From a virus, in the IMG/VR virus record IMGVR_UViG_3300045996_001641, positions 1 to 43,438 of that record: a stretch of DNA of 43,438 nt; one strand, given 5' to 3'. This document shows, piece after piece, positions 5,778-38,597 of this stretch. The position numbers were made by a program, and so were the translations under genes. The notes beneath the pieces were generated by a model. The model was not told the origin of the DNA. It worked only from the letters and a program-made list of their open reading frames with translations, and ran no database searches. Numbering within the stretch: the stretch's first letter is position 1; each line of letters begins with the position of its first letter.

Positions 5778-5812
5778 AGTCTGTTGACAGACTATTCACC
5801 GGGTGTCATATT
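5778..5812 (+). promoter_or_regulatory. Promoter and operator of the toxin-antitoxin operon
   Basis: TTGACA (5784-5789), 17 bp, CATATT (5807-5812) form a good -35/-10 pair. A perfect palindrome, AGTCTG-TTGA-CAGACT (5778-5793), overlaps the -35 box. This is the usual arrangement where an antitoxin represses its own operon. A weaker repeat, CCGT-TGTTG-ACGG, lies just upstream (5757-5769) and contains TTGACG. The start codon follows the -10 by only six bases, so the transcript would be leaderless or nearly so. Confidence 0.65.
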
Positions 5813-5818
5813 GGTTCC

Positions 5819-8934: not shown

Positions 8935-9194
8935 GAGAGCAGCAGCTCCGCAGCCACGTCACCCATCCCCGCGCTCTGCCCACGCTCCCGCATGGCTCGC
9001 TTGACCGCTTCCCTGGTGTCGTCTAGTTGCCGTCGAGCTTCGGTCGGATCCTGGGCGAATGACTCGACGGTGAAGGCATGCACGATCGCCGACGCCCTGA
9101 TCGCCGCCTCCGGTGAGTGATCGCAGACCAGCTCGGTCATCAGCGTGCCGATCGCGTCGATGATCTCGACTTGGGCTAGGGTGTGGGGTTTCAA
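8931..9194 (-). CDS. Hypothetical helical protein, 87 aa
   Basis: Almost wholly helical (AQVEIIDAIGTLMTELV, AAIRASAIVHAFTVESFAQ, ARRQLDDTREAVKRAMRERG) with an acidic/hydrophobic pattern. It overlaps both neighbours by four bases, so it is translated with the HNH nuclease and the acetyltransferase. No family recognised. Confidence 0.6.
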   Translation of the reverse strand: MKPHTLAQVEIIDAIGTLMTELVCDHSPEAAIRASAIVHAFTVESFAQDPTEARRQLDDTREAVKRAMRERGQSAGMGDVAAELLLS

Positions 9195-9925
9195 GCGGCT
9201 ACCTTTCGCGTCTGTTCCTTGGCTCTGCGCTCGAAGCGTGGGAGCCAGTCGAAGATCAGGTCGTCGTGCTTGCTCGCGTTGCAGCTGCCGCAGGCCGGCA
9301 CAACGTTTTCCACGGAGTGAGTTCCACCGCGCGCGAGCGGTCGGAAGTGGTCCATGCTGGTGCCTGGCTCAAGACAGAACGCACAACAGTGATTGAACTG
9401 CTCCAGGATCTCCGCCCATTGATCCGGTGTCACCCCAGTAGATTCGGCGGACTTCTTACGGGCCCTCCGCTTCTCTTCGCTCGCCGTAACCCGCGCCTTG
9501 TTCGCGTGCTTCCATCGCAGGGTCATAGCTGACACTGCCTGTCTATTGTTCGCTCGGTATTGCCTAGAAGTCTCAAGGCGCTTCTCCTTGTGCCGCTGGT
9601 AGCTGGCAGAGGATCGCTGCTTTTGCACAGACTTCGGCAACAACGCGCGCTGCTTGGCAACGTGCGCCTTCGCGCACTCCTTGCACTGGTACGTTATGCC
9701 GTCCTTTGCTTTGGAGTTCTTGTAGTATTCTGAACTCGGCTTGTTCGCCTTACAGACGGGGCATATCTTCGACGAAGGGGGCACCCGTTCGCGTGATGAA
9801 ATCCACTTGGCTTGAGCCTTCTTGTCGCATCCCCTGCATCGCCAAGACAGGCCGTCTGGTCGCGTTTTGCAGTTACTGAATTCAGCTAGTGGCAAGCTCA
9901 GCTTACACGCGCCGCACACTTTCAC
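9191..9925 (-). CDS. HNH endonuclease with N-terminal zinc knuckles
   Basis: 244 residues, GTG overlapping the phosphoesterase stop. Four Cys pairs (4/7, 30/33, 55/58, 81/84) form two similar zinc units, each 'C.xC...F/Y..N......W/Y.C..C'. A long basic helical region follows (about 90-165). The nuclease core is CCAFC...MDHFRPLARGG...NVVPACGSCNASK, with the DH dyad at 192-193, a conserved Asn, and two Cys pairs for structural zinc. It may be a homing-type endonuclease or a packaging-associated nicking enzyme; being collinear with its operon favours a working phage gene. Confidence 0.85.
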   Translation of the reverse strand: MKVCGACKLSLPLAEFSNCKTRPDGLSWRCRGCDKKAQAKWISSRERVPPSSKICPVCKANKPSSEYYKNSKAKDGITYQCKECAKAHVAKQRALLPKSVQKQRSSASYQRHKEKRLETSRQYRANNRQAVSAMTLRWKHANKARVTASEEKRRARKKSAESTGVTPDQWAEILEQFNHCCAFCLEPGTSMDHFRPLARGGTHSVENVVPACGSCNASKHDDLIFDWLPRFERRAKEQTRKVAA

Positions 9926-11166
9926 GCCGCCACCTTCTGCCCTCTGACCATTGCCATCTCGTTCACGATTGGAATCACCTGGCCCCAGACGCACCCGTGC
10001 TCGTCCATGTCGATCAGCCCAAAAGCATGCTGCCAATCACGCAGAGCTCGAGCCTTGTGCAAGTAGCTAATTTCAGCATACGAGCCGAGCCATCCTACGT
10101 TCAAGCAGACGTGACCTTCGCCCTTCGTGGTGCCTTGATAGGCGACCGACGCTCTGTGGGAATGCCCCACTGAAACGTTGCCGCCGACATCGAGCAGCGA
10201 TTGGCGCGCAGTGTTCACGCCGCATCGGCCTACGTCGTGCGTAAAGTACATCCGGCCCACATTGATCCCCTCGAAGTACGGGATCCACTCGATGCCGCGC
10301 TCTTTGACCTTCAGATATTCCTGAAGGGTTCGCACCATGCCATCCAATTCCGGCACCTTCTCTGCCACGATCCGCGTGAGCCGCCTTTCGTGGTTGCCCT
10401 CGGTCCAGATCTTTCTGGGGATGCGTAGCGCGTCGATCTCGTCGAGTTTCTCGTTCACAACGTCGAGCTCTTCGACGACTCTGTGTCGGCGGGTCGGGCT
10501 CTTCGTGTGGCTAGAGATGGCTTCGCAATCGGCAAAGTCGCCTATCAGGACCAGCACATCCGGACGCACCTTTCGCGCCACATTCAGGAACACTTCCCAT
10601 GCGACAGGGTCGTGGTACGGAACGTGAGTGTCTGGGCAGACTAGGATCGTTTGCTCTCTGCCGGAGAACGTCGGTGGGCCCTTCGGCTCTTCACGCATGA
10701 CGAACGTGCGATCCGCGGCCGGCTTCTGGAAGAACTCGCTGATTTTCGGCATCTCCCATGAGATGCCGAGGCGCTCGTTTTCCTCTCGCCGCTGCTTCTC
10801 CAGGATCTCGTACGGGGTGCTGGTCTCTAGAAAAGAATGACGCCCAGGCTTCACGTCGACACGCGACGGAGAGGCCTGGGCGGGGTTTGATGCGGGAGCC
10901 GCGTACGGTCCCGCTTTATGTGCCGGCACCTGTCCGGCTCGATTCAAATGATCGCTGGGCGTACCTAGATTCAGATCAGGAAACCGACGCCGGCCAGTCT
11001 CAAACAGCTCTCGCAGTGAGCGCGGCGAAGTCTGCCACCCGTGCTCACGTAGCAGCAACGCGCAGGCGTCGCTCGCGTTGGCGCTGCGGTTCAGCGCATG
11101 CACCAGCACATGAAAGTCTTCGCGCTCTCTTCGCGTAGGGATGCCCAATCGATCCTCCCGAAGCAC
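9922..11166 (-). CDS. Calcineurin-like metallophosphoesterase with helical N-terminal extension
   Basis: 414 residues. All metal-binding motifs are visible: D179-T-H181, GDFAD (209-213), GNHE (257-260), the His of FTHD (310) and GHSH (334-337). The fold hydrolyses phosphoester bonds (nucleotides, nucleic acids or phosphoproteins). The first 60 residues look like a helix-turn-helix (ASDACALLLREHGWQTSPRSLRELFE), followed by a Pro/Ala-rich linker. That suggests DNA targeting, perhaps an Mre11/SbcD-like or phage DNA-repair role. The gene is preceded by a tandem repeat at 11254-11279. Confidence 0.85.
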   Translation of the reverse strand: MLREDRLGIPTRREREDFHVLVHALNRSANASDACALLLREHGWQTSPRSLRELFETGRRRFPDLNLGTPSDHLNRAGQVPAHKAGPYAAPASNPAQASPSRVDVKPGRHSFLETSTPYEILEKQRREENERLGISWEMPKISEFFQKPAADRTFVMREEPKGPPTFSGREQTILVCPDTHVPYHDPVAWEVFLNVARKVRPDVLVLIGDFADCEAISSHTKSPTRRHRVVEELDVVNEKLDEIDALRIPRKIWTEGNHERRLTRIVAEKVPELDGMVRTLQEYLKVKERGIEWIPYFEGINVGRMYFTHDVGRCGVNTARQSLLDVGGNVSVGHSHRASVAYQGTTKGEGHVCLNVGWLGSYAEISYLHKARALRDWQHAFGLIDMDEHGCVWGQVIPIVNEMAMVRGQKVAA

Positions 11167-16125: not shown

Positions 16126-18237
16126 TCAGTCCCTGATCACAGTCAGCGTGACCACGAGGTCATCGGTTGCTGCCGCATCGTAGGCGCCACGTGCTTCGAG
16201 AACTCCGAAGATCGAACTGGAGCCGCTGGTCACGTAAGGGAGCGCGACAGGCCCGCCGAGCCACGTGCCCTGTACGATGCGACTGTTTACGTAGGTGTGT
16301 TGATTGTCGGTGTCGAACTCGATGACGCCGATCGGGATCGCGGTCGCCAGGTTCGCGTCGGTGAACTCAAGGGCTCCGTTGTCCGCGTTGGCCAGCGTTG
16401 GTGAGACCTTGAAGAGGTGGAGCCGGATATCGAATACGCTGTTTGCGTCGTCGAAGAGCAGGGCACCAACGATCGTCCCAGACCGCCCGCTGGCCAGCGC
16501 TGCGTTCGAGAATGTCATCACCGAGCCGAGCCGATCTCCGCTCGCATAGACAGCGGTGTCGATGGTCGGCGTGACCTGGATATCGATCTGGTTGACGCTC
16601 GGCTTGACCACCTGGGCGCCGTTGAGATCGGTCCAGACTCGAGCCGCGTCGCCGTCGGTGCTGACAGCGGTCGGGACGCCAGCCGTGGCGAATCCGCCGA
16701 TCAGGACTGGATTGCCAGCCACAGCCGCGTCATGCGCCGCGTCGCCGACCACTTCGAGCGTATTGGTCGAGGCGGGCAGCGAACCGACCGCAATCGTGCC
16801 GGTCGAGTCGTTGGCCACCGTGACCCTGAGCGCCGTCGCGGCCGAGCCATTGCCGGTCGTAGACAGCGGCGCCGGTACGGTCAGCACATCGACATCGCCG
16901 ATGTTGTTCGTGCCGGCTGGTAGGGCGGCCACGACATCGACCTGGAGTTCGTTGCCAGCTACGGCATTGTCGAGTAGCCCAAGAGACGTGGCAGCCGCCG
17001 CAAGGTTGCCACCCGACTCGAGAGCGAGCACCGACGTGTTGAGGTTCGTGCCGGCGTTGGCGGTGACGGTTCCTGAGACCGTGACCGAACCGGTGACCGT
17101 GACGTCGTTGTTGCTCCCGAGGTTGACCAGTAGGCCGTCGGTGCTCGAGCCGGGGATAAGCTGGCCTCCGCCTGAGGCCGAGCCGACGAGTCCGACGACG
17201 GCCCGCGTATCGGTGCCGCCGCCCGTGTCTAGGTCAGCGGTTGTGAGTTCGGTGTCTGCCGTTACCGACCAGCTGCCGCTCTGAGTGACGGCATGCGTGG
17301 CGACGGTGAGTGTGCCCTCGATGGCGGTCTCGATCGCGGCGAGATGCCCGATCGCAGTCGACTGATTCGCAGCCGTGGACGCCCCGGTCGGAAGCGAGAC
17401 CGTGCCCGAGACGTTGGTGACGTTCCAGGTTCCGGACTGAGTGGCCGCTACCGTGCCGTCGACGGTGATGACGCCGCCACCGTCGTCGATCGAAAGCGTC
17501 GCGCCGTTGTCGGTGACCGGGATCGAGTCGACGTGCTTGACGTAGAGCTCGCCGGAGTTGGTGCCTCTCGCCGCCACATTGTCGCCGTCCGTGGTGACAA
17601 GCGAGCCAGAGCGCGCGTCGTTGCGGACCAGGATGAGCGCGCCGCCAACCGGGTTGCTGGCCGCGGCCGCATCCTCGGTGTACTCGGTGCCGGAGCCGCC
17701 TGAGCCGCCGCCGAAGCTGGTGATCTGGTTGCCGTCCGCGTCGACGACCGCCACGGTCATGGCCCGCTCGGAGCCGGCCACCTTGCTGGTCAGCGCGTTC
17801 CCGGATCCATCCTGGCAACGAACACCCCACGTGCCCGACTGGGTGACCGCATGGGTGCCAACCGTGAGCGTCCCCTCGACCGCCGCTTCGATGGCCGAGA
17901 GGTGACCGATTGCCGTGGCCTGGCTGGCCGCTGTGGCGGCTCCTGAGGGCAGGGGCAGGGAAGCGGCCGAGACCGCCAGCGTGCCCTCTACGGCCGTCTC
18001 AATGGCGCTCAGCGAGGCGTTGGCGGTCGCCTGGGCAGCGGACGTAGCGGCGCCCGTGGGGAGCGGCAGGGAGGCAGCGGTGACGGGGAGCGGTGCAGCG
18101 CTGGATACGTCCGTGGCCGAACCGTCGGCGCCGAACTGGACCTTGACCCTAGGCGAATGGACGCCGCCGATGTCGTCGGAGGCGAATGTTACTCCGCCCT
18201 CTTCGGTCGTTGGTGGGGTCGTATAGTTGTCGGACAA
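16126..18237 (-). CDS. Long repeat-containing tail fibre-like protein
   Basis: 703 residues, Ala/Thr/Ser/Gly/Val-rich. Copies of a unit 'LP.GA.TAA.QATAIGHLSAIE.AVEGTL.V' are at about 57-90, 94-126 and 281-311, two of them followed by THAVTQSG.W.V. The middle is β-rich with short TVSGTVTANAGT patterns. The last 150 residues look like a globular head domain. Fibres of this composition occur in many phages with Mu-like tails. The first 40 residues (about 15-35: GVTFASDDIGGVHSPRVKVQFG) are a common fibre N-terminus, likely the baseplate-binding end. Confidence 0.75.
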   Translation of the reverse strand: MSDNYTTPPTTEEGGVTFASDDIGGVHSPRVKVQFGADGSATDVSSAAPLPVTAASLPLPTGAATSAAQATANASLSAIETAVEGTLAVSAASLPLPSGAATAASQATAIGHLSAIEAAVEGTLTVGTHAVTQSGTWGVRCQDGSGNALTSKVAGSERAMTVAVVDADGNQITSFGGGSGGSGTEYTEDAAAASNPVGGALILVRNDARSGSLVTTDGDNVAARGTNSGELYVKHVDSIPVTDNGATLSIDDGGGVITVDGTVAATQSGTWNVTNVSGTVSLPTGASTAANQSTAIGHLAAIETAIEGTLTVATHAVTQSGSWSVTADTELTTADLDTGGGTDTRAVVGLVGSASGGGQLIPGSSTDGLLVNLGSNNDVTVTGSVTVSGTVTANAGTNLNTSVLALESGGNLAAAATSLGLLDNAVAGNELQVDVVAALPAGTNNIGDVDVLTVPAPLSTTGNGSAATALRVTVANDSTGTIAVGSLPASTNTLEVVGDAAHDAAVAGNPVLIGGFATAGVPTAVSTDGDAARVWTDLNGAQVVKPSVNQIDIQVTPTIDTAVYASGDRLGSVMTFSNAALASGRSGTIVGALLFDDANSVFDIRLHLFKVSPTLANADNGALEFTDANLATAIPIGVIEFDTDNQHTYVNSRIVQGTWLGGPVALPYVTSGSSSIFGVLEARGAYDAAATDDLVVTLTVIRD

Positions 18238-21532: not shown

Positions 21533-21999
21533 TAAACGGCAGCTCCAAGCTCAACAGGGAAGATGTCGCCGGCCGGGTCTTTGGCAACGATTCCGGCCTG
21601 CTCGATCGACAGGTACATTGATAAGCCAACAGCGGGCGCAGGCACGCTCGCGTCAGAGATAGGCGATAACCGGATCACTTCGACGAGTTGCGAGATCCCG
21701 ACGCTGGTCACACTCAGGCGCAGCACGTAGGCCGTGGCACTGTCCACGATGCACTGAATTGTCCACAGCCCGCCCACGTCCGGTGTGAACGAGACTGAAG
21801 CGCCGGTCGTAGCGTCGAGCGCAGAGCGAGCTCGATTGCTCGTCGATGGCCAGCTGAGCGACCACACGTAGTCGGTGCCACTTGGGTTCGTGGTCAGAAG
21901 GATCCGCTCATTGGTCACATACCCAGCCCGCGCGTTGTCGGCAGACGTGTCACCAGCGAGCATTGTCGCCGACGCTGAATTGGCCAGTATTCCTGCCAT
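21532..21999 (-). CDS. Ig-like tail protein, 155 aa
   Basis: β-rich (RILLTTNPSGTDYVWSLSWP, TTGASVSFTPDVGGLWTIQCIVDS, AYVLRLSVTSV), the usual pattern of one bacterial Ig-like domain ('VSFTPD..G.W.iq..v.d'). It has the same type of core as the N-terminus of its neighbour at 19913. Its ATG lies almost exactly opposite the start of the HNH gene on the other strand. Confidence 0.65.
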   Translation of the reverse strand: MAGILANSASATMLAGDTSADNARAGYVTNERILLTTNPSGTDYVWSLSWPSTSNRARSALDATTGASVSFTPDVGGLWTIQCIVDSATAYVLRLSVTSVGISQLVEVIRLSPISDASVPAPAVGLSMYLSIEQAGIVAKDPAGDIFPVELGAAV

Positions 22000-22786
22000 G
22001 TGCTATGGAGTCCCTGTGATTAGGTACAATGGGAAGTCACAGAGCGTGGCTGCGTGGGCTCGTGAGCTCGGCATATCTGCTCTGTCGCTCAGGTGGCGGC
22101 TCGACAACGGGTGGAGCGTGGAACGCGCACTGTCGATTGCTCCCTCCAAACACAACAAGCGCATCGACATCACTGGCGAGCGCTTTGGTAGGCTTGTTGC
22201 GCTGAGTGCGCACTCTTACGGCAAGCAAACCAGGTGGAACTGCGTCTGTGACTGTGGAGAGAGGCGCGTTGTGCTGCTCTCGCAGCTGCGGGATGGTAAG
22301 ACGCAGTCATGCGGCTGTTTACACATTGAGCGGGTTAAGGCGGCTCGGACCCACGGAATGGCTAGCTCGCCGGAGTACACGGTGTGGCGCTCAATGCTGG
22401 ATAGGTGCAGGAACCCGAATGGGGCCACCTACGCCAGGTATGGCGGTCGCGGCATTGCTGTCTGCGCCAGGTGGCAGGGTTCCTTCGAGGCCTTCTATGC
22501 AGACATGGGTCCTCGACCATCGCCTGAGCATTCGATCGACCGCATCGACAACTCGGGCAACTACGAGCCCGGGAACTGTCGCTGGGCCACCCACACGGAA
22601 CAGGCTCTGAATAAGCGCAACAATCGCTTCATCGAGTGGAATGGGGCGCGCCTTACTGTGACCCAGTGGGCGGGAAGGATCGGCGTGTCACAGTCGGCGT
22701 TGTCTCACCGGCTGTCACGTGGCGAGGATCCGTGCGCGGCGCTTTCCGCTTTGTCCCGTTACGTTGCTAGGCGACGCGCTGCGTAA
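21998..22786 (+). CDS. HNH homing-type endonuclease flanked by duplicated helix-turn-helix modules
   Basis: 262 residues, opposite to all neighbours. Core: CVCDCG/SCGC zinc residues (82-107), HG and YTVWRSMLDRCRNPNGATYARYGGRG (127-151), then HSIDRIDNSGNYEPGNCRWATHTEQ (178-202), the signature of phage HNH homing endonucleases. Residues 10-46 and 213-250 are related to each other (NGKSQSVAAWARELGISALSLRWRL against NGARLTVTQWAGRIGVSQSALSHRL), so DNA-reading modules sit on both sides of the catalytic core. It has inserted between two tail genes without disrupting them. Confidence 0.85.
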   Translation: MCYGVPVIRYNGKSQSVAAWARELGISALSLRWRLDNGWSVERALSIAPSKHNKRIDITGERFGRLVALSAHSYGKQTRWNCVCDCGERRVVLLSQLRDGKTQSCGCLHIERVKAARTHGMASSPEYTVWRSMLDRCRNPNGATYARYGGRGIAVCARWQGSFEAFYADMGPRPSPEHSIDRIDNSGNYEPGNCRWATHTEQALNKRNNRFIEWNGARLTVTQWAGRIGVSQSALSHRLSRGEDPCAALSALSRYVARRRAA

Positions 22787-26313: not shown

Positions 26314-26849
26314 CAGACCGCCAGTGTGAAGCGAGGGTCTGAGACAGCTGCACCAGTGTCGCTATAGACGCGTACACGCACCGTCTGCCCAGAGATCACA
26401 ACCGGTGCGACGCGATGGGCGGTGGCCATGACGGTCGTCACCGCCTGCGTGGGGGCGAACGGGCCAGCCGTAGCGTACTCATCGTCGTAGCTCGCATCGA
26501 AAGTGACCGTAACGTCGCCGTTCCCGTTGCGGGCGACGGAGGGGTAGCCAGCAGGCGGACTGTCTCCCGCGTAGCTCGTCGATGGCACACCGGTCATCAT
26601 ATTGATGAACTCGACAGTCGGCGCAGCCGGAGACGAGTCGTTGCAGAGCATCGTCATCACGCACATCGGCAGCGTGCGCACGACCGCTGCGAGGTCGGCG
26701 GCAGCACGGCAAAGGTTCTCCGCGCCTACGTCCGTCTGGGCGTTTATGCACCCAGAATTCATGAAGTTCTGCTTGTTAAGGTTGCCGCCGTATTGCTCGT
26801 GGCTCGCAGTACGAGTCCAGGCTGGCAACCCCTCAGGTATGATCGGCAT
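26310..26849 (-). CDS. Paralogue B of the tandem pair, tail region, 179 aa
   Basis: The N-terminus LPAWTRTASHEQYGGNLNKQ is like that of the YmfQ-like protein at 25087, while the rest is like paralogue A (NGNGDVTVTFDASYDDEYATAGPF; ending FTLAVW). It looks like a mosaic. The start overlaps the baseplate J stop. β-rich with two Cys pairs (LCRAAADLAAVVRTLPMCVM). It is probably a baseplate-associated accessory. Confidence 0.6.
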   Translation of the reverse strand: MPIIPEGLPAWTRTASHEQYGGNLNKQNFMNSGCINAQTDVGAENLCRAAADLAAVVRTLPMCVMTMLCNDSSPAAPTVEFINMMTGVPSTSYAGDSPPAGYPSVARNGNGDVTVTFDASYDDEYATAGPFAPTQAVTTVMATAHRVAPVVISGQTVRVRVYSDTGAAVSDPRFTLAVW

Positions 26850-28357
26850 CAGATCGGGTAGAAGGCTAGATTTTGAGGAACAAGCACGTTCGGCGGATCA
26901 TCGACACCGCTCGGGATGGTCGGCGTCGTCAGGCTCTGATGCGAGAACTCGAAGTCAGTGATCTCCGGGTTGTCTCGACTCAGGCGAGTGAGCGCGGCGT
27001 TGGTGACGCCAGCTGGGTCTTCGCTCGTGGTGAACGGGTGTCGCTTCGATCGCGGCAACCGGTTCGCGTCGGCGGTCATCTCTCCGGGGCCGAGTTCCTG
27101 GAACAGCGCCACCCAGGTCTCGGCGTACCTCACCAGGTTCTGTGCGTTGGGCGAGATGAAGTCGCCGACAGTTGGGCCGATGCCGTTCTTGCCGACAAGC
27201 GGTCGGTCGAGGGTGAGCACCCAGGCGCCGGCCGTGCCGCTGTGGTCGGTAACGAGCGCGGGATAGAAGGTCCGGTCGTTGCGACTGAACCACGCTACCT
27301 GAGTCTGTCCGTCCACCGGCTCTGTCGCGGTATCAGCGGTGACGGTGATCTCGTCGTTCGTCGAGTTGACGGCGCTGATCGTCACGCGTCCGTTGTCTGC
27401 TGGCTCGAGCTGCGGCCATGGATCCGGGTCCGTCCAGCCCTGCCCGTTGCCGCCCGCGAGTGACGATTCGGGGATCTCAAGCAGCACTGCAAAGTCAGCC
27501 GCTTCATCGATGGCGGCGCGAACCGAAGTCTCGATGCCGGTGTTGGCGTCGGCCTGCAGCGAGTTGCGGATCGCCTGTAAGAGCGCGTCCGATGGCGCAC
27601 GCGAGAAGTCGTTGTTGTCCGGATCGAACTCGCGAACCGGAACGATCAGCTGCGAGCTCGGGCCACCGAGGGCAGGGTAGATGTAGCAGTCCTGGACGAA
27701 GCCGAACTCAGCCAGCACCTTGTCGCGCAGGTAGGCCCAGTTGCCCGCCGCGGGCTTGTTCCTGAGGACGTTGAGAATGCGGTCGCGCTTGCGCTCGTCA
27801 TCCTCGGCATTTGTGCCGCCGGTTAGCGGGAACTCTGCAGAGACTTCGGCCTCGGATTCGACGTTGGTTGGCGGCGAAACGAACGTGACGGTCTCGCCGG
27901 CTGCGAGGTTCGTGTCGGTGCCGGTGTCGATCGCCGCAACGTCGATCTCTTGGCCATCGACCGGGTTGATCGTCGTGCTGATCGTCTGGATCCGCTTGCC
28001 GTTCGGGAGCGTCAGCTGTTGACCGCTGCCGATCGTGGTCGAACCAAGGACCGTGACCCTGATCTTGCCGCTCGCGCCGGTGGGCTCGACGATGTCTAGG
28101 CCGTAGCCTTCACGCAGCCGATCGAGAGCCGCGCCCGTCGCGGTAAGGACGTTGGCATCGTCAGCGTGTATCGACTCGTTCGTGATCCCGATCAGCGAGA
28201 TCTGAGCGATGCCTTCGCCGATGATGTAAGCGTCGGTGCCGGGGCCAACGGGCGCAACCAGGCCAGCGTCAGAGGCAGCAAGCTGGTAGTCGGTGAGGAA
28301 CTGATTGCGCAGCTCCGCCGATCCGCTCGGCGTGGTGATGACAGCTACTTCAGCCAC
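26849..28357 (-). CDS. Baseplate J-like wedge protein (Mu gp47 family)
   Basis: 502 residues. Motifs of the J family appear in order: a helical start, GAALDRLREGYGLDIVEPTGASGKIRVTVLG, the insertion of β structure with TIGSGQQLTLPNGKRIQT, then TGGTNAEDDERKRDRILNVLRNKPAAGNWAYLRDKVLAEFGFVQDCYIYPALGG, the best-conserved segment of the family. It forms baseplate wedges that trigger sheath contraction. The start overlaps the upstream gp25-like gene's end by a few bases. Confidence 0.85.
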   Translation of the reverse strand: MAEVAVITTPSGSAELRNQFLTDYQLAASDAGLVAPVGPGTDAYIIGEGIAQISLIGITNESIHADDANVLTATGAALDRLREGYGLDIVEPTGASGKIRVTVLGSTTIGSGQQLTLPNGKRIQTISTTINPVDGQEIDVAAIDTGTDTNLAAGETVTFVSPPTNVESEAEVSAEFPLTGGTNAEDDERKRDRILNVLRNKPAAGNWAYLRDKVLAEFGFVQDCYIYPALGGPSSQLIVPVREFDPDNNDFSRAPSDALLQAIRNSLQADANTGIETSVRAAIDEAADFAVLLEIPESSLAGGNGQGWTDPDPWPQLEPADNGRVTISAVNSTNDEITVTADTATEPVDGQTQVAWFSRNDRTFYPALVTDHSGTAGAWVLTLDRPLVGKNGIGPTVGDFISPNAQNLVRYAETWVALFQELGPGEMTADANRLPRSKRHPFTTSEDPAGVTNAALTRLSRDNPEITDFEFSHQSLTTPTIPSGVDDPPNVLVPQNLAFYPI

Positions 28358-28802
28358 CCGGGAAGCTCACTCTCTGGTCTGGGACGCCTGTGGTCATGTC
28401 GGTGTAGACGACGGTTGTTTCAGACCGTCCGCCAACGCCCTTGCGGACTAGGATCTGGTCGATCCGCAGAACCTTCTCGACATCGGTCATCTGCTGCAGC
28501 GCGAGACGCACCGCTGCCTTCATCTCGGCCTCGAAGGTGTCGCCCATCTTTTGCGGTCGCTTGATTCCGAACGTGGGCTGTGTCGGAATCGATCCCTGCT
28601 CGGTTAACAGCGCGAGCAATACGCGTTGCCGAATCTCCGGCATCTGCGCGAACTGGCCAGTTGTCGCGTTGTATGCGTAATCACGCGTCGAAGCGTCGAT
28701 GTATCGAGAGCCAGCTGGACTCGTCGTCGGCAGCGCGGCCTCGCCGGGGACACCGAGGCCGTAAGGAGAGCCGCCGAATGGCGCAGAGCCGAATCCAGGC
28801 AT
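28350..28802 (-). CDS. gp25-like baseplate wedge protein (Mu gp46 family)
   Basis: 150 residues. RYIDASTRDYAYNATTGQFA, then PEIRQRVLLALLTEQGSIPTQPTFG and ALQQMTDVEKVLRIDQILV fit the GPW/gp25 family order (a 'mv.QRv...L.Te.Gs....p.fG' block). It bridges the wedge to the sheath. It lies directly upstream of baseplate J, as in Mu. The gap before its start holds the first gene of the opposite-strand island. Confidence 0.75.
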   Translation of the reverse strand: MPGFGSAPFGGSPYGLGVPGEAALPTTSPAGSRYIDASTRDYAYNATTGQFAQMPEIRQRVLLALLTEQGSIPTQPTFGIKRPQKMGDTFEAEMKAAVRLALQQMTDVEKVLRIDQILVRKGVGGRSETTVVYTDMTTGVPDQRVSFPGG

Positions 28803-29278: not shown

Positions 29279-29467
29279 ATGGGATTCGGGAGGAATGAAG
29301 ACTTGTCTCGCTCGACTTTGATTGCTCTGACCGTTGCCGCCATCGCGGCAGGCGGTGCCGTGTGGAAGATCTCCAGCTACCAAACCGAACAAGAGCGCCT
29401 GGGCAAACTCAGGGCTGTTTGCTCGCAGGTCTACACGCCTGCTTGCGACGAAATCGAGGGCCAATGA
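29279..29467 (+). CDS. Island gene 2: small membrane protein, 62 aa
   Basis: One N-terminal span (STLIALTVAAIAAGGAVWKIS), then a short tail with two Cys (CSQVYTPACDEIEGQ). ATG 29279 is used; a TTG 24 bases later has a better-placed GGAGG. The TGA overlaps the next ATG. A one-span protein followed by an overlapping lipoprotein is the arrangement of i-spanin/o-spanin pairs, but the periplasmic part here is very short. Confidence 0.6.
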   Translation: MGFGRNEDLSRSTLIALTVAAIAAGGAVWKISSYQTEQERLGKLRAVCSQVYTPACDEIEGQ

Positions 29468-30015
29468 TTCGCCGAGCGCTTGAGTGGTTTGGTGGCTCCG
29501 TCTTGGTCTACGTGCTGGTCGCGGCGTGCAGTTCGACGTCCGGCGGCGGCGGGCAGCCTGTGTCGATGGGCGAGGGCGGCGATGGCTCTGGCGGTGTCCA
29601 GGGCAACGGTGGAGAGGGAGTCCAGGGCGGCCGCGACGGTGGCATCATGAACCCTGTGCCCGATGCGATGGCGGCTGCAGGTGCGGGCAACGATGGCGAT
29701 GGGTCCTGTGAGTGCCCCGATCCGTACGTGCCACCGAAGCCGACCGTCGTGGAGGCGGAATGCGATATCGAGGGGCCTAGTGGCGTCATGTTCGCCGAAG
29801 CGGAATTCCCCGGAAAGACCGCTGATGAACTTGCTAGCACCACTGCGCTTGTCGAGTTCCCTCACGACATCGCGAGCAAGGTGCCCACTGGAGCGCCTGA
29901 TGGCTACGCTGCCCAATCGGCAAACGTATTCGTGCGCGATGGGTTCGTCGCCACCAACTGCGGAGCGTCCGGGAACGACCACGTTGCAACGCGCGTGGTC
30001 TTCACGCTGCCCTAG
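29464..30015 (+). CDS. Island gene 3: Gly-rich lipoprotein, 183 aa
   Basis: The signal ends in LVAAC (Cys22), a fair lipobox. The mature N-terminus is a long Gly/Ser linker with many charges (SGGGGQPVSMGEGG, GGVQGNGGEGVQGGRDGG), a style common in myxobacterial surface lipoproteins. A C-terminal β-like domain follows (about 95-183: CECPDPYVPPKPTVVEAECDIEGPSGV, ending DHVATRVVFTLP) with four Cys. The final TAG is shared with the convergent gene's TAG (CTAG). It could be an o-spanin, a surface-exclusion factor or a cargo gene; not resolved. Confidence 0.65.
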   Translation: MIRRALEWFGGSVLVYVLVAACSSTSGGGGQPVSMGEGGDGSGGVQGNGGEGVQGGRDGGIMNPVPDAMAAAGAGNDGDGSCECPDPYVPPKPTVVEAECDIEGPSGVMFAEAEFPGKTADELASTTALVEFPHDIASKVPTGAPDGYAAQSANVFVRDGFVATNCGASGNDHVATRVVFTLP

Positions 30016-30314
30016 TCAAATGGGCACGGCACAGAGAACGTCGGCAGCGTCGGGAGCTTCGGAATCGGCAGGGACGGGAACGGCAGTGCTAGCTTCGGAA
30101 GCTCCAGGTTTACGTCAAAGTCCAGATCGACGCTGAAGCTTGGCAGTGACGGTAGCTTGGGAATGGGCAACGAAGGGAACGGCAGCGCGAGGGTCGGCAG
30201 ATCCAAGCTCAGGTCGATGTCCAAATCGACGCTGAAGCTTGGAATCGTGGGTAGCTTCGGGATCGGAAGCGATGGCACCGGCAGCCTCAGCGCCGGCAAA
30301 TCGAAATTACACAA
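30012..30314 (-). CDS. Pro-rich three-repeat protein after the spike gene (novel)
   Basis: 100 residues made almost wholly of a 33-residue unit: LPxLxLPxPSLPIPKLPxxP then SFSVDLDxDxxL, starting at 6, 39 and 72; the third copy lacks its last segment. The ends mirror each other: MCNFD at the start and PCPFD at the end. Hydrophobic Leu/Pro/Ile, with acidic patches only in the DLDxD turns. The gene follows the baseplate spike gene by three bases, where some contractile systems carry a spike-tip (PAAR-like) protein. A repeating tip or shaft, with the terminal Cys linking chains, is my inference; no family recognised. Confidence 0.6.
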   Translation of the reverse strand: MCNFDLPALRLPVPSLPIPKLPTIPSFSVDLDIDLSLDLPTLALPFPSLPIPKLPSLPSFSVDLDFDVNLELPKLALPFPSLPIPKLPTLPTFSVPCPFD

Positions 30315-30317
30315 GCT

Positions 30318-30965
30318 CTACTTGCCGACGCCCATCACAGGGAACAGGAGCACAGGGGTTGGCGGTGTCTGCCCAGCAGGCGCCCCCTGCATGAGGACCA
30401 TGTTGGGCAGCATCCCGGGCAGCGAGAGGTCGCCGATCACGTAGACCTTGTCGTCGATGCGCAGGCCGGCTCCACCCTTAGCGGTCATGGTGATCGCTCC
30501 GTCTTCGCCGATCTCAATGATCGCCCCACGTGCCGTCCACTGCGCCTTCTTGTTCTTGCCGTCGAGCATGAACAGCATCGACTTGCCGTTCGTGTCATCG
30601 GTGGCGAGCCCAGCCTGCTTCTTCTCGTGTTTGAGGAAGCATTGAGCGACGGAACCTGGCCCCGTAGAGTGCACAGTAGTGTCGCCTGGCTTGAGCTTGC
30701 CGACCAGTGTCGCGTTGCGCGTGTCGCGAGCGCCGATGCAGATAGCGTTGTTGCCGCCGACGTCCTCGACGAAGCAACCTTGGGCGAATCCGGTATCGTC
30801 CTTCGGGAACGGCAGCGAGCTCAGGCCCAGGCCCTGATAGACCTTTAGTTCGCCGATCGGTTCCGCGTCATCGACGTCGTTGGCAACCGGCACAACCGAC
30901 TGCCACATGGGGCAGCCGTTGACGACGCGCGAGGCGCCAAGAACGGCAAGGTCTATGCGGTGCAT
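30318..30965 (-). CDS. Baseplate spike/assembly protein V (Mu gp45-like)
   Basis: 215 residues. An N-terminal strand-rich OB-like region, then ICIGARDTRNATLVGKLKPGDTTVHSTGPGSVAQCFL, typical of the gpV/gp45 baseplate puncturing protein. A β-helix-like C-terminal part follows (GAIIEIGEDGAITMTAKGGAGLRIDDKVYVIGDLSLPG) and a Pro-rich tail. It would form the trimeric needle that breaches the outer membrane. It follows the hub gene directly, as in Mu. Confidence 0.75.
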   Translation of the reverse strand: MHRIDLAVLGASRVVNGCPMWQSVVPVANDVDDAEPIGELKVYQGLGLSSLPFPKDDTGFAQGCFVEDVGGNNAICIGARDTRNATLVGKLKPGDTTVHSTGPGSVAQCFLKHEKKQAGLATDDTNGKSMLFMLDGKNKKAQWTARGAIIEIGEDGAITMTAKGGAGLRIDDKVYVIGDLSLPGMLPNMVLMQGAPAGQTPPTPVLLFPVMGVGK

Positions 30966-30968
30966 CGG

Positions 30969-32204
30969 CTATTCAGTGTCAGCGGTGATGACGAATGCGC
31001 CGGGACGCCACATCTCGAGGTCAGTGGTTGCGCCCTGGTTAGGCGAATACTTGAGCGTGCGGCGCGCGATCCACAGGTTCTCGTTGATCCCTGCGGTCGA
31101 GTCGTTCACTTCGCACATCGTGTTTACGGTCCAGATCGCGCCCGACTCTGGCTCGACGTGTCCACGAACGGTCACCGTGTAGCTCAGCGAGTCCTTCAGC
31201 AGCTCGGCGACTGCCTTCACAATCGCGTTGTCGATCTGCTCCGGATCCTTCGCGTCTTGGTCTCGGTAGTAGAGCAGCCGGTAAATCTTGTTGGTGTTGC
31301 GCGACTTGCCATTCGGGAGTCGACGACCAATCTCAGCAAGGTCTACAACCGTCTGCATCTGCGGTAGTAGCGACCGGCCCTGCACAACGGTCTCGACGTA
31401 GTCGACTAGGTTGAACTCGGAGTCGAGCCGGTTGCCGGCTGAGTCGCCAGTCTGCGGCGAGTTGCCGGTAAAGAGCGCATAGGTGGGGAAACTCGAGTAG
31501 TCGCGCGTCGCTGTGGCCGAGATGACGTTGTTGCTTGCGGAGCCTACCGTGTCGTCGGTGCGCTTGATGGCGTACCAGGGCGCCTGCGTATAGTCAGGCT
31601 CGCTCAGGATGACGGTCGAGCGATCCACATCCGGCTGCATCGTCGTGCCGAGTCGGTCCGTGATGCGCTTACAGAACTCGTAGATCCCTTCGCCAGGCTT
31701 GGCCTTGTAGTCAGACGATAGTGGCTTCGTCTTGCGCGGTCGTTTGGCCGTGCTCTTGCGCCGCTTCTGCTTGGGCATCCCGAGCCGGGTGTCGAGCGCC
31801 ACCGACTCGCTCGCGTCGATGATGACCGTGATGCCGCAGGGCGACATTGCGTTCCGGAGTGCAGTCTCCAGCGTGTCTCCGGCCGCCACCTTCACGAGCG
31901 GGTCGACGTTGCACTCGACCAGCTCGGCGATGTAGTCGCGGCCCTCGCAACGAATGGTCTTCGCAGTTTCGCCGCGAACCGTCTGATCGATGCGCCCCGC
32001 CAGCTGAGTTGCGCCGTTTACGATCAGGTCTACCGGCTGAAACTCCAGGTTCGTGATCAGCGCCTGGTCTTCTTCGAACAGTCGGAAACGAAAGCCGTCC
32101 GTGCTCACAAGGTATGCGCTATCGATCTCCCACTCGGTGACGTTGGTTGTTTCCCTGCCGAGCGCTGAAAAGCGAACGGTCAGGCCAGTGTCAACGTCGG
32201 CCAT
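30969..32204 (-). CDS. Baseplate hub protein (Mu gp44/gpP-like, late control D family)
   Basis: 411 residues. ADVDTGLTVRFSALGRETTNVTEWEIDSAYLVSTDGFRFRL is the usual opening of hub proteins. A later SDYKAKPGEGIYEFCKRITDRLGTTMQPDVDRSTVIL and a basic linker (KQKRRKSTAKRPRKTKPL) follow. It forms the trimeric hub that holds the spike and starts tube assembly. Its start overlaps the LysM gene's end by 14 bases, so both are translated together. Confidence 0.75.
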   Translation of the reverse strand: MADVDTGLTVRFSALGRETTNVTEWEIDSAYLVSTDGFRFRLFEEDQALITNLEFQPVDLIVNGATQLAGRIDQTVRGETAKTIRCEGRDYIAELVECNVDPLVKVAAGDTLETALRNAMSPCGITVIIDASESVALDTRLGMPKQKRRKSTAKRPRKTKPLSSDYKAKPGEGIYEFCKRITDRLGTTMQPDVDRSTVILSEPDYTQAPWYAIKRTDDTVGSASNNVISATATRDYSSFPTYALFTGNSPQTGDSAGNRLDSEFNLVDYVETVVQGRSLLPQMQTVVDLAEIGRRLPNGKSRNTNKIYRLLYYRDQDAKDPEQIDNAIVKAVAELLKDSLSYTVTVRGHVEPESGAIWTVNTMCEVNDSTAGINENLWIARRTLKYSPNQGATTDLEMWRPGAFVITADTE

Positions 32205-33090
32205 CGGCGCGGTAAACGCGGATCGGTGTGTTTGGCGGAACCGACGGGCGGCGAGCCAGGCTGGGGTTCAGGTCGAGCAGCTCCTTGACGGTCATTCCCG
32301 CCTCTGCAGCGACGCCAGAGATGGTCTTCAGATAGCGAGCAGTAACGGTCACGACCTGGCGCTGCGGGTCGCGCGCTCGACTGGCTAGGTTGGTTGCCGC
32401 CGCTCGATTGCGCCTCGCTGCCCGCTGGATCTGAAACCCGTCCGGGTTCTCAAGCCGCGCCGCCTGCTCCTCGATCTTCTCGAGCTTGAAAGCCGTCGCC
32501 TCAAGTGCGGCGACTCCCTTGTTGGCGTTGCCTTCGATCTGAGCGCCGAAACCAGCAATGGCGTTTAGCGCATCCATCGACGGCTCGGGTGAAGCCTCTT
32601 GGCCCCAATCGACGCGCGCTAGATCTTCGTCCAGCTTTCCCGCATCGGTGATCAGCCCGGAGATTGTCGGGTTCGGCTCCTCAGCGAACGGCGAAGCGAT
32701 GTCGACCGATCGCGTGAAGATGACTCGGACGTCCGTGCCGTCACGCTTCTGAAGGTCGATGTCGTCGTCGAACGACTGAGGTACACACGAGAACGACCCA
32801 TAGACCGGGTCTTCCAGGATCGCCCGAGTCTTGTCGAGCATGTCCCGAAACAGGATCGGCAGCCCCTCAGTGAAGAGGTTCAGATAATCCTTGATCGCGA
32901 TGTCTTCGCGGAGCGCCAGCGTGTACGAGAAGGTTGGCGAACGCGCGCCTAGTTGCTCGATGAACTCTCCGTCTCGGTACTGGATCCGAGTCGGCGCACC
33001 GTCGTGAGAGAACGAGACGTTACGCGCCAGTACCGGATACGCGATGCCGCGCCACCTGAATGGCGGGAGCCGCCTAAGTTCGTCTGTCAC
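32191..33090 (-). CDS. LysM baseplate protein with N-terminal DNA_circ/Mu gp43-like domain
   Basis: 299 residues. The N-terminal part (FRWRGIAYPVLARNVSFSHDGAPTRIQYRDGEFIEQLG) is of the DNA_circ_N type seen in Mu gp43 (N) proteins. A helical middle with an Arg-rich helix (RAARRNRAAATNLASRARD) follows. The C-terminus has a LysM-like domain (SGVAAEAGMTVKELLDLNPSLARRPSVPPNTPIRVYR). It links tape measure and hub, probably as a baseplate or tube-initiation protein with peptidoglycan affinity. Confidence 0.75.
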   Translation of the reverse strand: MTDELRRLPPFRWRGIAYPVLARNVSFSHDGAPTRIQYRDGEFIEQLGARSPTFSYTLALREDIAIKDYLNLFTEGLPILFRDMLDKTRAILEDPVYGSFSCVPQSFDDDIDLQKRDGTDVRVIFTRSVDIASPFAEEPNPTISGLITDAGKLDEDLARVDWGQEASPEPSMDALNAIAGFGAQIEGNANKGVAALEATAFKLEKIEEQAARLENPDGFQIQRAARRNRAAATNLASRARDPQRQVVTVTARYLKTISGVAAEAGMTVKELLDLNPSLARRPSVPPNTPIRVYRADGRR

Positions 33091-35393
33091 GACTTCTTCA
33101 CGCCCGAAGGCTTGTCGGAGCGGTTGACTGTAGACGCGTTGATCTTCTTCACGATTGCGTCGCCAATCTTCTCGCCTACTGCATTGGCCGCATTAGGGTC
33201 GATCTCTTGTGCCGCAAAGTTCTTGCGCCCGTATCGCTGCGCCATCTCATCCACGCCCAGCAGGCGCTTGGTCTCAGTGGCTCCGCCCTGATACTCCTTC
33301 GACGTGACGGCACCGATCACGGCGGAGCGGCGCTTCATCTCCGCATCCGCATCGTCGCTGCCAAAGAGAGCCGCAACACTCCGGCCGTAGCCAGTAAGCG
33401 TTCCCTCGTTCAGCGCCTCTGAGCCGGCTGCCAGGGTCTTGTCTTCTGTCAAGGCGAGGGTCTGAAGCTTTGCTCGGGTCTCCGGAGTTAGCGCCCCATG
33501 CTGATCGATCTCCGCCTGGGCCTGCTTGCGGACCTCGTCGCCACGCAGAGCAGCATCCTTCGCAGCGGCCTTACCTTCGTTCTGCTTCGCCTCTAGCCAG
33601 GTGACGAAACCGGCAAGAGCCGCAGTAACGCCGACGGCGGCTATTCCCACCGCTCCGAGCGGCGTGATGATTCCACCCGTCAGAGCAGACGATATTTGCG
33701 CCTTGGCGATCTCGGCAGTGAGGCTCGCGGCGAGGATGGCGCCGATACCAAGCACCGGGTTATCAGCAAGGGCCTTGCCTAGATCCAGGAACATGCTGGT
33801 TACTGCGCGAACGTATGGAGCTAGCTCCTTCAGAATCGGAGTCAGCTCCTTGACGACCGGCGTCAGCTCCTCAGAGAACACGCCCTTCAGTTCCATGATG
33901 GCGAGTTCGAGCTGAATGCTTGCGCTCTGCTGGATATCGGAAGCGTCCCGCTGGATCTCCTTGTAGTTGCCGCCGACGCCGGAGAACTCGCCGAGCATCT
34001 TAACGACCGCCGCATGGCCAGCGTCGCCACCGCCCGCGCGCGTAAACTCGGAGATGAAGGGGTTCATACCCTTCATGCCCTCGTCGCCAAACAGCTTCTG
34101 TAGCTCGATCTTGTTGCCACCAGAGGCGCGCAAGACGTCGGCGATCAGCACGTCGATGTCGCCGCGCATCGCGCCGGTCGCCTTCCCACCCTCGAAGACA
34201 TTCATCTTCTTGCCGGTGGAGAAAGCGGTGCCCTTCTGGATGTCGTCCGCCTTGGCCACCATCTGGCGGAAGATCGAATCGGTCGCGGTGCTCGTAACAG
34301 CCGCATCACCGGTACCACGCTGGACGACCTGCAGGACCGCCCCCATTTTGGCGATCCCCTCGACGCCACCGCCGACGCCACGACCGGAGAGGCCGGCCGT
34401 TACTCGCGGTAGTTGCGCGGCTAGGTCCTTGAACTCAAAGCTGCCCTTTTTCCCCTGGAAGGTGAGCTTTGCCAGAGCTTCAGTAAGGTCGTTGATGTCC
34501 TCGACCTTGAAGTTCTGGAAGAGGCTCGCCGCTGCCTCTGCGATCTCCGCTGGCTCGCCCCCAGTAGCCTGCCCGAACGTCGCGAACGTGTCGGCCATCT
34601 TCAGACCCACGTCGCCGCGACCGGTTACGGTCTGAAATTGCTGAGCGCCGGCCATGACAGCCTCCGGCGCAACGCCGCGAGCTGTCGCAATCTGCATGAC
34701 CTGGCGACGGATCGCCTCCGGGTCCATGCCAGTCGTGCCGACGTCGCGACCGGCAACCGAGAAGCGACGGATCTGCTCATCGAGCCTCAGCGTCTCAGAG
34801 ACCGCAGAGCCGGCTAGAACGCTGCCTCCGACGCCGATCATGGCGCCGCCCATCGCACCGACTGCGCCGAGCTTAGACACTGAGCCGGTTACACCAGAGC
34901 CGATCGAGCGGACGAACTGACCCTTAGATGCCTTCTGCTCACGAATGCGCTCGCGTGCAGAGGCCCGTAGCTTGTTCAGCTCCTCGCGCTTAAGTCTCTC
35001 CGCGTTCGCAAGCTTCAGCCGGTGAGCGGTGATCTCGCCGCGCTGCTCGAGCATCTGCATCTGGCGCGCTTCAGCCGCGGCCTTACGCAGGAATGACTGA
35101 CGCTCCTTAGCCACACGCTTTTGGCCAGCAATCTCTTGCTTGACGCGTTGATCTGCAGATCGCTTCTGCGCGTTGTCCCAATACTTCTGCTGGCGCTGCT
35201 GCTCGCGCGCGATCTCCGCGATCTCTGCTCCCGGCCTAGACCCCGACGCGCGCTCACGCAGACGACCGCCACCGCCAGCAAGGACGCGGTTGATTCGCGC
35301 GTTGTGTTGAACGAAGCGACGCTCAACGTTTCCGAGAGCTCTGGCGATGTCATTCTCGCCGATCACCCTCAGGTCGTAGGTCAGAATAGCCAA
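33087..35393 (-). CDS. Tail tape measure protein
   Basis: 768 residues, the largest tail protein in the window. Charged helical N-terminus (about 1-150), then a Gly-rich hydrophobic patch (VGAMGGAMIGVGGSVLAGSAV), then a TP901-like minor-tail core: GVAPEAVMAGAQQFQTVTGRGDVGLKMADTFATF and AASLFQNFKVEDINDLTEALAKLTFQGKKGS. Two further membrane-like stretches occur near 530-600. Its length should set the tail length. The stop overlaps the LysM gene's start. Confidence 0.9.
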   Translation of the reverse strand: MAILTYDLRVIGENDIARALGNVERRFVQHNARINRVLAGGGGRLRERASGSRPGAEIAEIAREQQRQQKYWDNAQKRSADQRVKQEIAGQKRVAKERQSFLRKAAAEARQMQMLEQRGEITAHRLKLANAERLKREELNKLRASARERIREQKASKGQFVRSIGSGVTGSVSKLGAVGAMGGAMIGVGGSVLAGSAVSETLRLDEQIRRFSVAGRDVGTTGMDPEAIRRQVMQIATARGVAPEAVMAGAQQFQTVTGRGDVGLKMADTFATFGQATGGEPAEIAEAAASLFQNFKVEDINDLTEALAKLTFQGKKGSFEFKDLAAQLPRVTAGLSGRGVGGGVEGIAKMGAVLQVVQRGTGDAAVTSTATDSIFRQMVAKADDIQKGTAFSTGKKMNVFEGGKATGAMRGDIDVLIADVLRASGGNKIELQKLFGDEGMKGMNPFISEFTRAGGGDAGHAAVVKMLGEFSGVGGNYKEIQRDASDIQQSASIQLELAIMELKGVFSEELTPVVKELTPILKELAPYVRAVTSMFLDLGKALADNPVLGIGAILAASLTAEIAKAQISSALTGGIITPLGAVGIAAVGVTAALAGFVTWLEAKQNEGKAAAKDAALRGDEVRKQAQAEIDQHGALTPETRAKLQTLALTEDKTLAAGSEALNEGTLTGYGRSVAALFGSDDADAEMKRRSAVIGAVTSKEYQGGATETKRLLGVDEMAQRYGRKNFAAQEIDPNAANAVGEKIGDAIVKKINASTVNRSDKPSGVKKS

Positions 35394-37052: not shown

Positions 37053-38597
37053 TCAGCCCGTCGAGACCTCGGCCACGCGGAACGTACCGATTAGGTTGTG
37101 ATCGATGATGTGCAGGTTGTAACCGCACTCAAGTCGAGAACCGTTCTTCTCGACGCGCACCGATTCGAGCGTTGCGTCGAGTTCCTGTGAGTGGCCGCGG
37201 TTGAAGAAGTCACGCAACAGCGAGAACAGGCGTGGCTTGTAGAGCGATGGGCGCGTCACGTTCGGGCGCAGCGGCTGATTCGGATTCGGCTTCCCGTTTT
37301 CCAGGAACGTGTCGTTTTCGAGTTTCTTGCCGGCCATGTTGAGGTGCCAGTCGGCCAGCACTTCGTCGACCTGCAGATCGGCGCCGCTCACGCGGTGGCA
37401 CTCAGTCGCCCGGAAGTCGTCTTGGGTGCCGGCCGCGTTCTTGCTGCGGGTGTTGACGTTCATCACCCAGACCGGGCCCGAGTCGGTCGACTGGATCGGC
37501 GACAATCCGTCGTTGATCGCGTCGTTCAGGTCGGTGTCAGTCGGCCAATCCGCGTTGCTGTAGCAGTTGGAAAGGATGTCGCTGAGCGAGTAGGTGGCGA
37601 GGTTCGCGGTTGCATCCAGCGCTTCCGCCTTCTGGCGGATGCCGGCGATGGCGCCAGCGATCTCGGCGCAGTCGTTGTCAGGCTTCTCGAGCCAGAGGAT
37701 TTGAAGGCGCTCGTAGTTGCGGCCAGTGGCCAACGTCGTCGCGTTGGCGAGGGTGCCGGGGTAGGCAGTGATCGCTACACTGCGAAGCCCGCGCCGAGGC
37801 TCGCTCTTGTTGACGATGTGCGTCTTCAGGTGACCTAGACTCGTTGCGTCGTTTGCGGAGCTGACGATGTAGTATTTGCGCGTCGAGTCGATCGTTGCCA
37901 GCGCGGACGCGAGGTTTGCGGCTTCGGTCGTGGTGCCGTCGGCGCCAGCAACGCCGGTCCCGAGGTGGGCGCCAGAAACGCTGATTGTCGTTCCGGTACC
38001 GGTAGAGATCTCGGCGCGTGCGCTGATGACGGGAACGGTGGCGGTGCCCTGGCTGACTCCAAGTAGCTTCGCGGTTACGGTCAGCGTCCCAGACGAGTTG
38101 TCGGCAGTGACAGGCAGCCACGGCTTCGCGTTGATTGCCGCCTTCACGCCAGCCGCGATCGTGGTGACGGTGTCGCCGCTTGCGTACGTAAAACTGCAGG
38201 CCTCGCCACAGATGTACACGGTAGTGGTCCCACGCGCTGTCGCGTTGGTCGCGTAGAGGCAGGTCCAGGTAGCCGCTACAGGAGAGCCGCCAGACGTCTC
38301 TGCAACGGGCAGCGCGTATACCTTCGCGTCCTTGTTCACCTGCATGAACTTGCGGATCCCGCGATGCAGCGGCGAACCTTCGCCAGCGCCGGTGATGACG
38401 TCCTGTTCGTTGCCGACGGGGTAGAGCGTCGTCGTAGCCGTCCAAGTGCCGGCAGAAAGCTTCGGCATGACAAAGACGACTTCTCGGACCCCTGTCGCGG
38501 CAGAGGCTGGCCCCTGCGCGAAGATCACCTCGGCATATGGCCCAGGAACGCGCCAGCTGCCGTCAATGCCCGTGATCGGAATGATGGGCGCACCCAT
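37053..38597 (-). CDS. Tail sheath protein (Mu gpL-like)
   Basis: 514 residues. The opening (GSWRVPGPYAEVIFAQGPASA, then VFVMPKLSAGTWTATTTLYPVGNEQDVITGAGEGSPLHRGIRKFM) is the fold of contractile sheath proteins. A central insertion domain (about 110-210: VAATWTCLYATNATARGTTTVYICGEACSFTYASGDTVTTIAAGVKAAINA) and a C-terminal half with LADWHLNMAGKKLENDTFLENGKPNPNQPLRPNVTRPSL follow. It contracts on adsorption to drive the tube into the cell. Its start is in a TAATG overlap with the previous gene. Confidence 0.9.
   Translation of the reverse strand: MGAPIIPITGIDGSWRVPGPYAEVIFAQGPASAATGVREVVFVMPKLSAGTWTATTTLYPVGNEQDVITGAGEGSPLHRGIRKFMQVNKDAKVYALPVAETSGGSPVAATWTCLYATNATARGTTTVYICGEACSFTYASGDTVTTIAAGVKAAINAKPWLPVTADNSSGTLTVTAKLLGVSQGTATVPVISARAEISTGTGTTISVSGAHLGTGVAGADGTTTEAANLASALATIDSTRKYYIVSSANDATSLGHLKTHIVNKSEPRRGLRSVAITAYPGTLANATTLATGRNYERLQILWLEKPDNDCAEIAGAIAGIRQKAEALDATANLATYSLSDILSNCYSNADWPTDTDLNDAINDGLSPIQSTDSGPVWVMNVNTRSKNAAGTQDDFRATECHRVSGADLQVDEVLADWHLNMAGKKLENDTFLENGKPNPNQPLRPNVTRPSLYKPRLFSLLRDFFNRGHSQELDATLESVRVEKNGSRLECGYNLHIIDHNLIGTFRVAEVSTG

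What the first reader, a model, noticed from the sequence alone, without database searches (positions are those of the whole stretch)
30012..30314. Three-repeat Pro-rich protein directly behind the baseplate spike
A 33-residue unit (LPxLxLPxPSLPIPKLP, then SFSVDLDxD) is repeated three times with near identity, and the chain begins MCNFD and ends PCPFD. Its gene follows the spike (Mu gp45-like) gene by three bases. Where other contractile systems place a PAAR-type tip, this phage has a hydrophobic repeat chain with matching Cys ends. It could be a new kind of spike tip, a membrane-inserting element or a chaperone. This is the strongest candidate for something new in the window.
Basis: partly seen in the sequence, partly recalled or inferred. 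Interest (0 to 1): 0.75.

Follow-up and report, generated by a model that had tools for sequence, protein, structure and literature searches.

The report
Three-repeat cap for phage piercing spike

Summary
ORF 30012-30314 encodes 100 aa with three 33-aa repeats, Cys at residues 2 and 97. It lies 3 bases after the gene in the Mu gp45 (spike) position of a sheath-bearing phage.

I found nine further records with the same gene in the same place. Five were reached through the spike alone, and all five have it. Every copy has one Cys near each end and no other. The layout is three-fold in all ten, though two are weak by statistics alone. Repeat length drifts from 32 to 37 aa, and the Cys-Cys distance follows at three repeats minus 3-6 (nine of ten). 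The gene evolves under purifying selection. Its frame relative to the spike varies, so it is not a readthrough tail.

The ten spikes lack the HxH iron-apex motif. Twelve canonical Mu-like spikes have it and lack the cap. No PAAR or DUF4280 match was found in nine of the records. Pfam, PHROGs, NCBIfam and PDB sequences have no match.

Best explanation: a separate, single-chain, pseudo-three-fold spike tip, a functional analogue of PAAR/gp5.4 from an unrelated family, probably closed by its terminal cysteines. The cap role, symmetry and disulfide are inferred; the AlphaFold2 models are too poor to show them.

The parts
30012..30314 (-). three-repeat Pro/Leu-rich cap gene (100 aa, TTG start), proposed single-chain spike tip
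   Evidence: homologues in the same place, purifying selection
30234..30299 (-). repeat 1, Pro-rich core LPALRLPVPSLPIPKLPTIPSF (residues 6-27)
30135..30200 (-). repeat 2, Pro-rich core LPTLALPFPSLPIPKLPSLPSF (residues 39-60)
30036..30101 (-). repeat 3, Pro-rich core LPKLALPFPSLPIPKLPTLPTF (residues 72-93)
30201..30233 (-). inter-repeat amphipathic strand 1 (SVDLDIDLSLD, residues 28-38)
   Evidence: alternating hydrophobicity, shuffle p = 0.0006
30102..30134 (-). inter-repeat amphipathic strand 2 (SVDLDFDVNLE, residues 61-71)
   Evidence: alternating hydrophobicity, shuffle p = 0.0006
30309..30311 (-). Cys2, N-terminal member of the conserved Cys pair
   Evidence: a Cys at residues 2-4 in all ten members
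30024..30026 (-). Cys97, C-terminal member of the conserved Cys pair (CPFD end)
   Evidence: a Cys 3-10 residues from the end in all ten members
30318..30965 (-). central spike gene (Mu gp45 position, 215 aa) without an HxH apex
   Evidence: gene order; Foldseek ranks spikes/baseplate proteins of contractile systems 1-4 and 6, not significant; no HxH
30969..32204 (-). Mu gpP-like baseplate hub
   Evidence: phrog_177 E = 2.3e-25
32191..33090 (-). DNA-circularisation N-like baseplate hub protein
   Evidence: phrog_184 E = 1.7e-5; PF07157 weak
33087..35393 (-). tail tape measure protein
   Evidence: phrog_794 E = 6.6e-16
28350..28802 (-). gp25/gp46-like baseplate wedge
   Evidence: phrog_43 E = 2.2e-5
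26849..28357 (-). baseplate J (gp47-like)
   Evidence: PF04865 E = 1.3e-20
37053..38597 (-). tail sheath: the tail is contractile
   Evidence: phrog_165 E = 1.1e-57

Best explanation
The gene encodes a separate tip protein for the central spike of a contractile phage tail. The spike in the Mu gp45 position is taken to be a homotrimer, like Mu gp45, and has lost the iron-binding HxH apex of other Mu-like spikes, leaving a blunt three-fold end. One copy of the 100-aa protein caps that end: its three ~33-aa repeats, each a Pro-rich extended stretch carrying a P-S-[F/L] motif plus an amphipathic beta strand, form the three sides of a pseudo-three-fold cone. The chain runs once round the axis and its two ends meet. 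The only two cysteines, one at each end and 3-6 residues apart in repeat phase, staple the ring shut, most simply by a disulfide formed once the virion is outside the reducing cytoplasm. On sheath contraction the capped spike is driven through the host envelope. The gene sits at or overlapping the spike stop with mostly GTG/TTG starts, suggesting coupled, weaker translation that suits one cap per three spike chains. Shown: the gene, its conservation, linkage to the spike, three-repeat layout, Cys pair, purifying selection, and the exchange between cap and HxH. Inferred: presence in the virion, binding to the spike end, one-chain pseudo-symmetry, disulfide.
For: Ten records (window, L002, L003, L005, L006, L007, L008, L009, L013, L028) have the gene directly behind the spike, spacing -4 to +7 bases. 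Five (L007, L008, L009, L028, MW202476) were found with the spike as query and all five carry the cap. Three-repeat layout in all ten; the Cys-Cys span is 3 x period minus 3-6 while the period runs 32-37 in nine of ten. Exactly two Cys per chain. Repeats within a chain are 66% identical, between phages 41% whether at the same or a different position, as expected if all three must fit one symmetric partner. Spikes of the ten have no HxH; 12 of 12 canonical Mu-like spikes do, with no cap detected in those loci by the cap HMM. No PAAR or DUF4280 match in nine of the ten records. Strands alternate hydrophobic and polar. Precedents: PAAR starts with pseudo-trimeric symmetry and caps the blunt VgrG beta-prism (PMC10715212); T4 gp5.4 caps gp5 (PMC4576200); P1 has a trimeric gp5 with monomeric UpfC (PMC12810830); virion disulfides exist in phage Milano (PMC10811340).
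Against: No direct structural or virion evidence. AlphaFold2 gave pLDDT 54 for the cap and 37 for the spike, so no fold is shown. The spike identity rests on gene order and non-significant fold matches. L028's cap is only weakly matched by the cap HMM (E = 0.02); it is assigned by position and architecture. L003's repeats are not significant against shuffles and L006's first repeat is degenerate. One control, Silvanigrella phage L040, has a spike without HxH and no cap, so loss of the apex does not strictly require this cap. Two Cys alone are not a complete metal site, and a disulfide is a guess.
Confidence: 0.66

Rival explanations
1. The protein is a homotrimeric extension of the spike: three chains, each with three repeats stacked along the axis, lengthen the beta-helix.
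For: Strand-like alternation and repeats suit beta-helical fibres; the spike itself is expected to be trimeric (PMC11915804 for Mu gp45).
Against: Stacked fibre repeats normally vary in number, yet the layout is three in ten of ten while repeat length varies. It gives no reason why the two chain ends, each with a Cys, fall at the same phase of the repeat.
Confidence: 0.13
2. It is an assembly chaperone that holds the blunt, hydrophobic end of the spike trimer before tail assembly and is absent from the virion.
For: Small, coupled to the spike gene, Pro-rich.
Against: Does not explain three repeats or the exchange with the HxH apex; without another tip the spike end would stay blunt, and no PAAR or DUF4280 match is found.
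Confidence: 0.09
3. It is a membrane-active element carried at the tip that inserts into the host membrane after contraction.
For: About 40% Leu, Ile, Val and Phe in the window copy and over 20% Pro.
Against: No stretch looks like a transmembrane helix; 17-29% Pro in the nine chains measured, plus Asp at every second residue in the strands, argues for a folded beta structure. Capping and membrane contact are not exclusive.
Confidence: 0.07
4. It is a C-terminal extension of the spike made by reading through the TAG stop.
For: In the window the two frames are the same, split by one TAG.
Against: The frame offset varies among relatives (0, 1 or 2) and starts can overlap the spike stop.
Confidence: 0.02

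Closest known systems
PAAR-repeat tip proteins (T6SS PAAR, PF05488; T4 gp5.4; P1 UpfC)
   Same: About 100 aa, beside the spike, a thrice-repeated motif in one chain, expected to cap a blunt trimeric beta-helix/prism.
   Different: No PAAR motif, no His cluster for zinc, no sequence match; three long LP-rich repeats with PS[FL] instead, and a Cys pair at the termini.
PAAR-like DUF4280 / IglG (PF14107)
   Same: Cys-bearing ~100-aa tip of a contractile system.
   Different: IglG has four conserved Cys that bind metal; here only two, one at each end; no match to PF14107.
Apex domain of Mu gp45 / P2 gpV spikes
   Same: Expected to do the same job, a sharp end on the spike, in the same gene neighbourhood.
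   Different: The apex is part of the spike chain and holds Fe through HxH; here the tip is a separate gene and the spike has no HxH.

Membership tests
PAAR (PF05488) | match to the PAAR_motif profile | tested here: not met
   No Pfam match for three family members scanned at E <= 10 nor for the window protein at E <= 1; no match in nine whole records, control genomes ring
PAAR (PF05488) | zinc ligands: three His and one Cys | tested here: not met
   0-1 His and exactly 2 Cys per chain
PAAR (PF05488) | gene beside a trimeric spike | tested here: met
   Ten of ten directly behind the gene in spike position; trimerisation of that spike not tested
PAAR (PF05488) | pseudo-three-fold cone fold | tested here: inconclusive
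   Three sequence repeats but AlphaFold2 pLDDT 54
DUF4280 / IglG (PF14107) | four conserved cysteines, profile match | tested here: not met
   Two Cys; no match in nine records
Mu gp45 / P2 gpV spike with apex domain (for the upstream gene) | gene order between the gpP-like hub and the gp25-like wedge | tested here: met
Mu gp45 / P2 gpV spike with apex domain (for the upstream gene) | C-terminal HxH iron motif | tested here: not met
   0 of 10 cap-linked spikes, 12 of 12 controls
Mu gp45 / P2 gpV spike with apex domain (for the upstream gene) | OB-fold plus beta-helix fold | tested here: inconclusive
   Model pLDDT 37; Foldseek ranks 1-4 and 6 are phiTE baseplate, Anabaena CIS, Algoriphagus eCIS, P1 baseplate and phi92 spike, E 0.02-0.33

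The most novel reading that the evidence does not exclude
A new family of contractile-tail spike tips, unrelated in sequence to PAAR, in which a single chain of three LP-rich repeats forms a metal-free pseudo-three-fold cone closed by a bond between its terminal cysteines, evolved as a replacement for the iron-loaded spike apex.
Probability: 0.42. Interest if true: 0.75.

Novelty: new variant of a known kind. Interest (0 to 1): 0.62.

Why it matters
Every contractile injector must turn a three-fold spike into a point. The known solutions cited here use a metal-bound apex or a PAAR-type cap with a metal site. A third, repeat-built and apparently metal-free solution would show what the tip actually requires, and a one-chain three-fold adaptor is a simple natural scaffold to study symmetry matching. 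It also shows that such tips are missed by current annotation: in GenBank record MW202476 the gene is called in the wrong frame, and low-complexity filters probably hide it.

Tried and rejected
Readthrough fusion with the spike: rejected, frame varies. Chance repeat: rejected. tblastn of the cap in the phage collection: no match, but blind, since MW202476 carries the gene and was missed, probably through the low-complexity filter; not used as evidence of absence. Genome-contig scans with cap and spike profiles found nothing, so no host is known. Pattern scan of viral contigs gave only L007 and L003 again. Profile comparison of the spike with known Mu-like spikes was not significant. AlphaFold2 of cap and spike failed in confidence; Foldseek against viral models was uninformative. 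No paper was found that combines baseplate, spike, phage and proline-rich repeats.

Full report
Observation. The ORF lies at 30012-30314 on the minus strand. It starts with TTG 3 bases after the stop of 30318-30965. Its 100 residues repeat with a period of 33 at 72% identity, far above shuffles. The Pro-rich core is present three times, the following strand fully twice; the chain ends supply the third.

Setting. The window is an IMG/VR virus record. It has a tail sheath (phrog_165, E = 1.1e-57), a tape measure protein, a DNA-circularisation-like protein, a gpP-like hub (phrog_177, 2.3e-25), the 215-aa gene, the repeat gene, a gp25-like wedge and J. This is the order of phage Mu genes 42-47, so the 215-aa gene is in the place of gp45, the spike. 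Sequence libraries do not recognise it. A low-confidence model nevertheless ranks phiTE baseplate, Anabaena and Algoriphagus injection systems, P1 baseplate and phi92 spike 1-4 and 6 in the PDB, at E 0.02-0.33. I treat the spike call as likely, not proven.

Family. Searching with the repeat protein and with the spike gave nine more records. In all of them the repeat gene follows the spike directly (-4 to +7 bases), and where the contig or locus goes on, a gp25-like gene follows, in some after a gap. Five records were reached by the spike alone and all five have the repeat gene, an independent test of the linkage. In MW202476 the deposited annotation has a wrong-frame hypothetical protein there. 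Each of seven records searched whole with the profile has exactly one copy. The window and L007 differ with dN/dS 0.24, L002 and L005 with 0.13.

Anatomy. All ten chains are 99-115 aa, with one Cys at residue 2-4 and one 3-10 from the end, and no other. Repeat length is 32-37 and the Cys-Cys distance is three repeats less 3-6 residues in nine of ten; the automatic fit for L006 failed at its degenerate first repeat, though its overall period of 34 stands above shuffles. L003 alone does not beat shuffles. Repeats are more alike within a chain (66%) than between phages at the same or other positions (41% each). The inter-repeat strands alternate hydrophobic and polar residues. P14-S15 and the equivalent prolines P47 and P80 are invariant in the alignment of eight, a thrice-repeated motif in the manner of PAAR.

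The exchange with the iron apex. Milano, P2, phi92 and Mu spikes hold Fe at the tip through a double-histidine motif (PMC10811340; Fe presumed in Mu, PMC11915804). None of the ten cap-linked spikes has HxH. All twelve canonical Mu-like spikes examined have it (two of them with the same C-terminus) and the cap HMM finds nothing in their loci. A thirteenth, the Silvanigrella phage L040, has neither, so other solutions exist. No PAAR or DUF4280 protein was found in nine of the records.

Mechanism. The simplest reading is a tip protein made as a separate chain. A trimeric spike needs a partner with three-fold faces; a single chain of three repeats supplies it, as PAAR does by pseudo-trimeric symmetry (PMC10715212), gp5.4 on T4 gp5 (PMC4576200) and UpfC on P1 gp5 (PMC12810830). 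Homogenised repeats follow if all three must fit identical sites. Chain ends that meet at one phase, each with a Cys, fit a closed ring; a disulfide is plausible after lysis, and virion disulfides are known in Milano. Mostly GTG/TTG starts at the spike stop suggest coupled re-initiation and less cap than spike. All of this paragraph is inference.

Limits. No model of useful confidence was obtained; nothing shows the protein in a virion; nine of ten records are unidentified metagenomic viruses and no host is known. L028 is weakly matched by sequence. The association counts are not phylogenetically independent.

Verdict.

Noticed in passing
window 29464-30015 (+); L013 5344-6138 (-); L007 5941-6342 (-): A gene on the opposite strand lies between cap and gp25-like gene, glycine-rich with a lipobox-like start in the window and L013 (VAACSST, VACSGG) and Cys-rich in L007; no Pfam match for the window copy; may be a cargo gene, its style recalls myxobacterial lipoproteins (memory, untested).
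   Followed up: partly
   Followed up: yes
window 5783-6166 and 6144-6446 (+): Overlapping Gp49-like (PF05973, E = 1.5e-15) and HTH (PF13560) genes: a HigB/HigA-type toxin-antitoxin pair on a phage.
   Followed up: partly
window 9191-10036 (-): HNH endonuclease (PF01844, E = 6e-8) with an N-terminal Cys-rich part, possibly a homing endonuclease.
   Followed up: partly
window 21974-22786 (+): Gene on the strand opposite to its neighbours with HNH/AP2-like look (RWATHTEQALNKRNN), no significant Pfam match; interrupts the tail-fibre region.
   Followed up: partly
L040 1372-1950 (+), Silvanigrella phage CP017837: A Mu-like spike without HxH and without the three-repeat cap; the next frame encodes a short protein ending PMMSLPGVSGGQILGTGKIL; its tip solution is unknown.
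   Followed up: no
window 16126-18237 (-): 703-aa protein with many ATQSGTWNV / TAIGHLxAIETAxEGTL repeats, likely a tail appendage.
   Followed up: no
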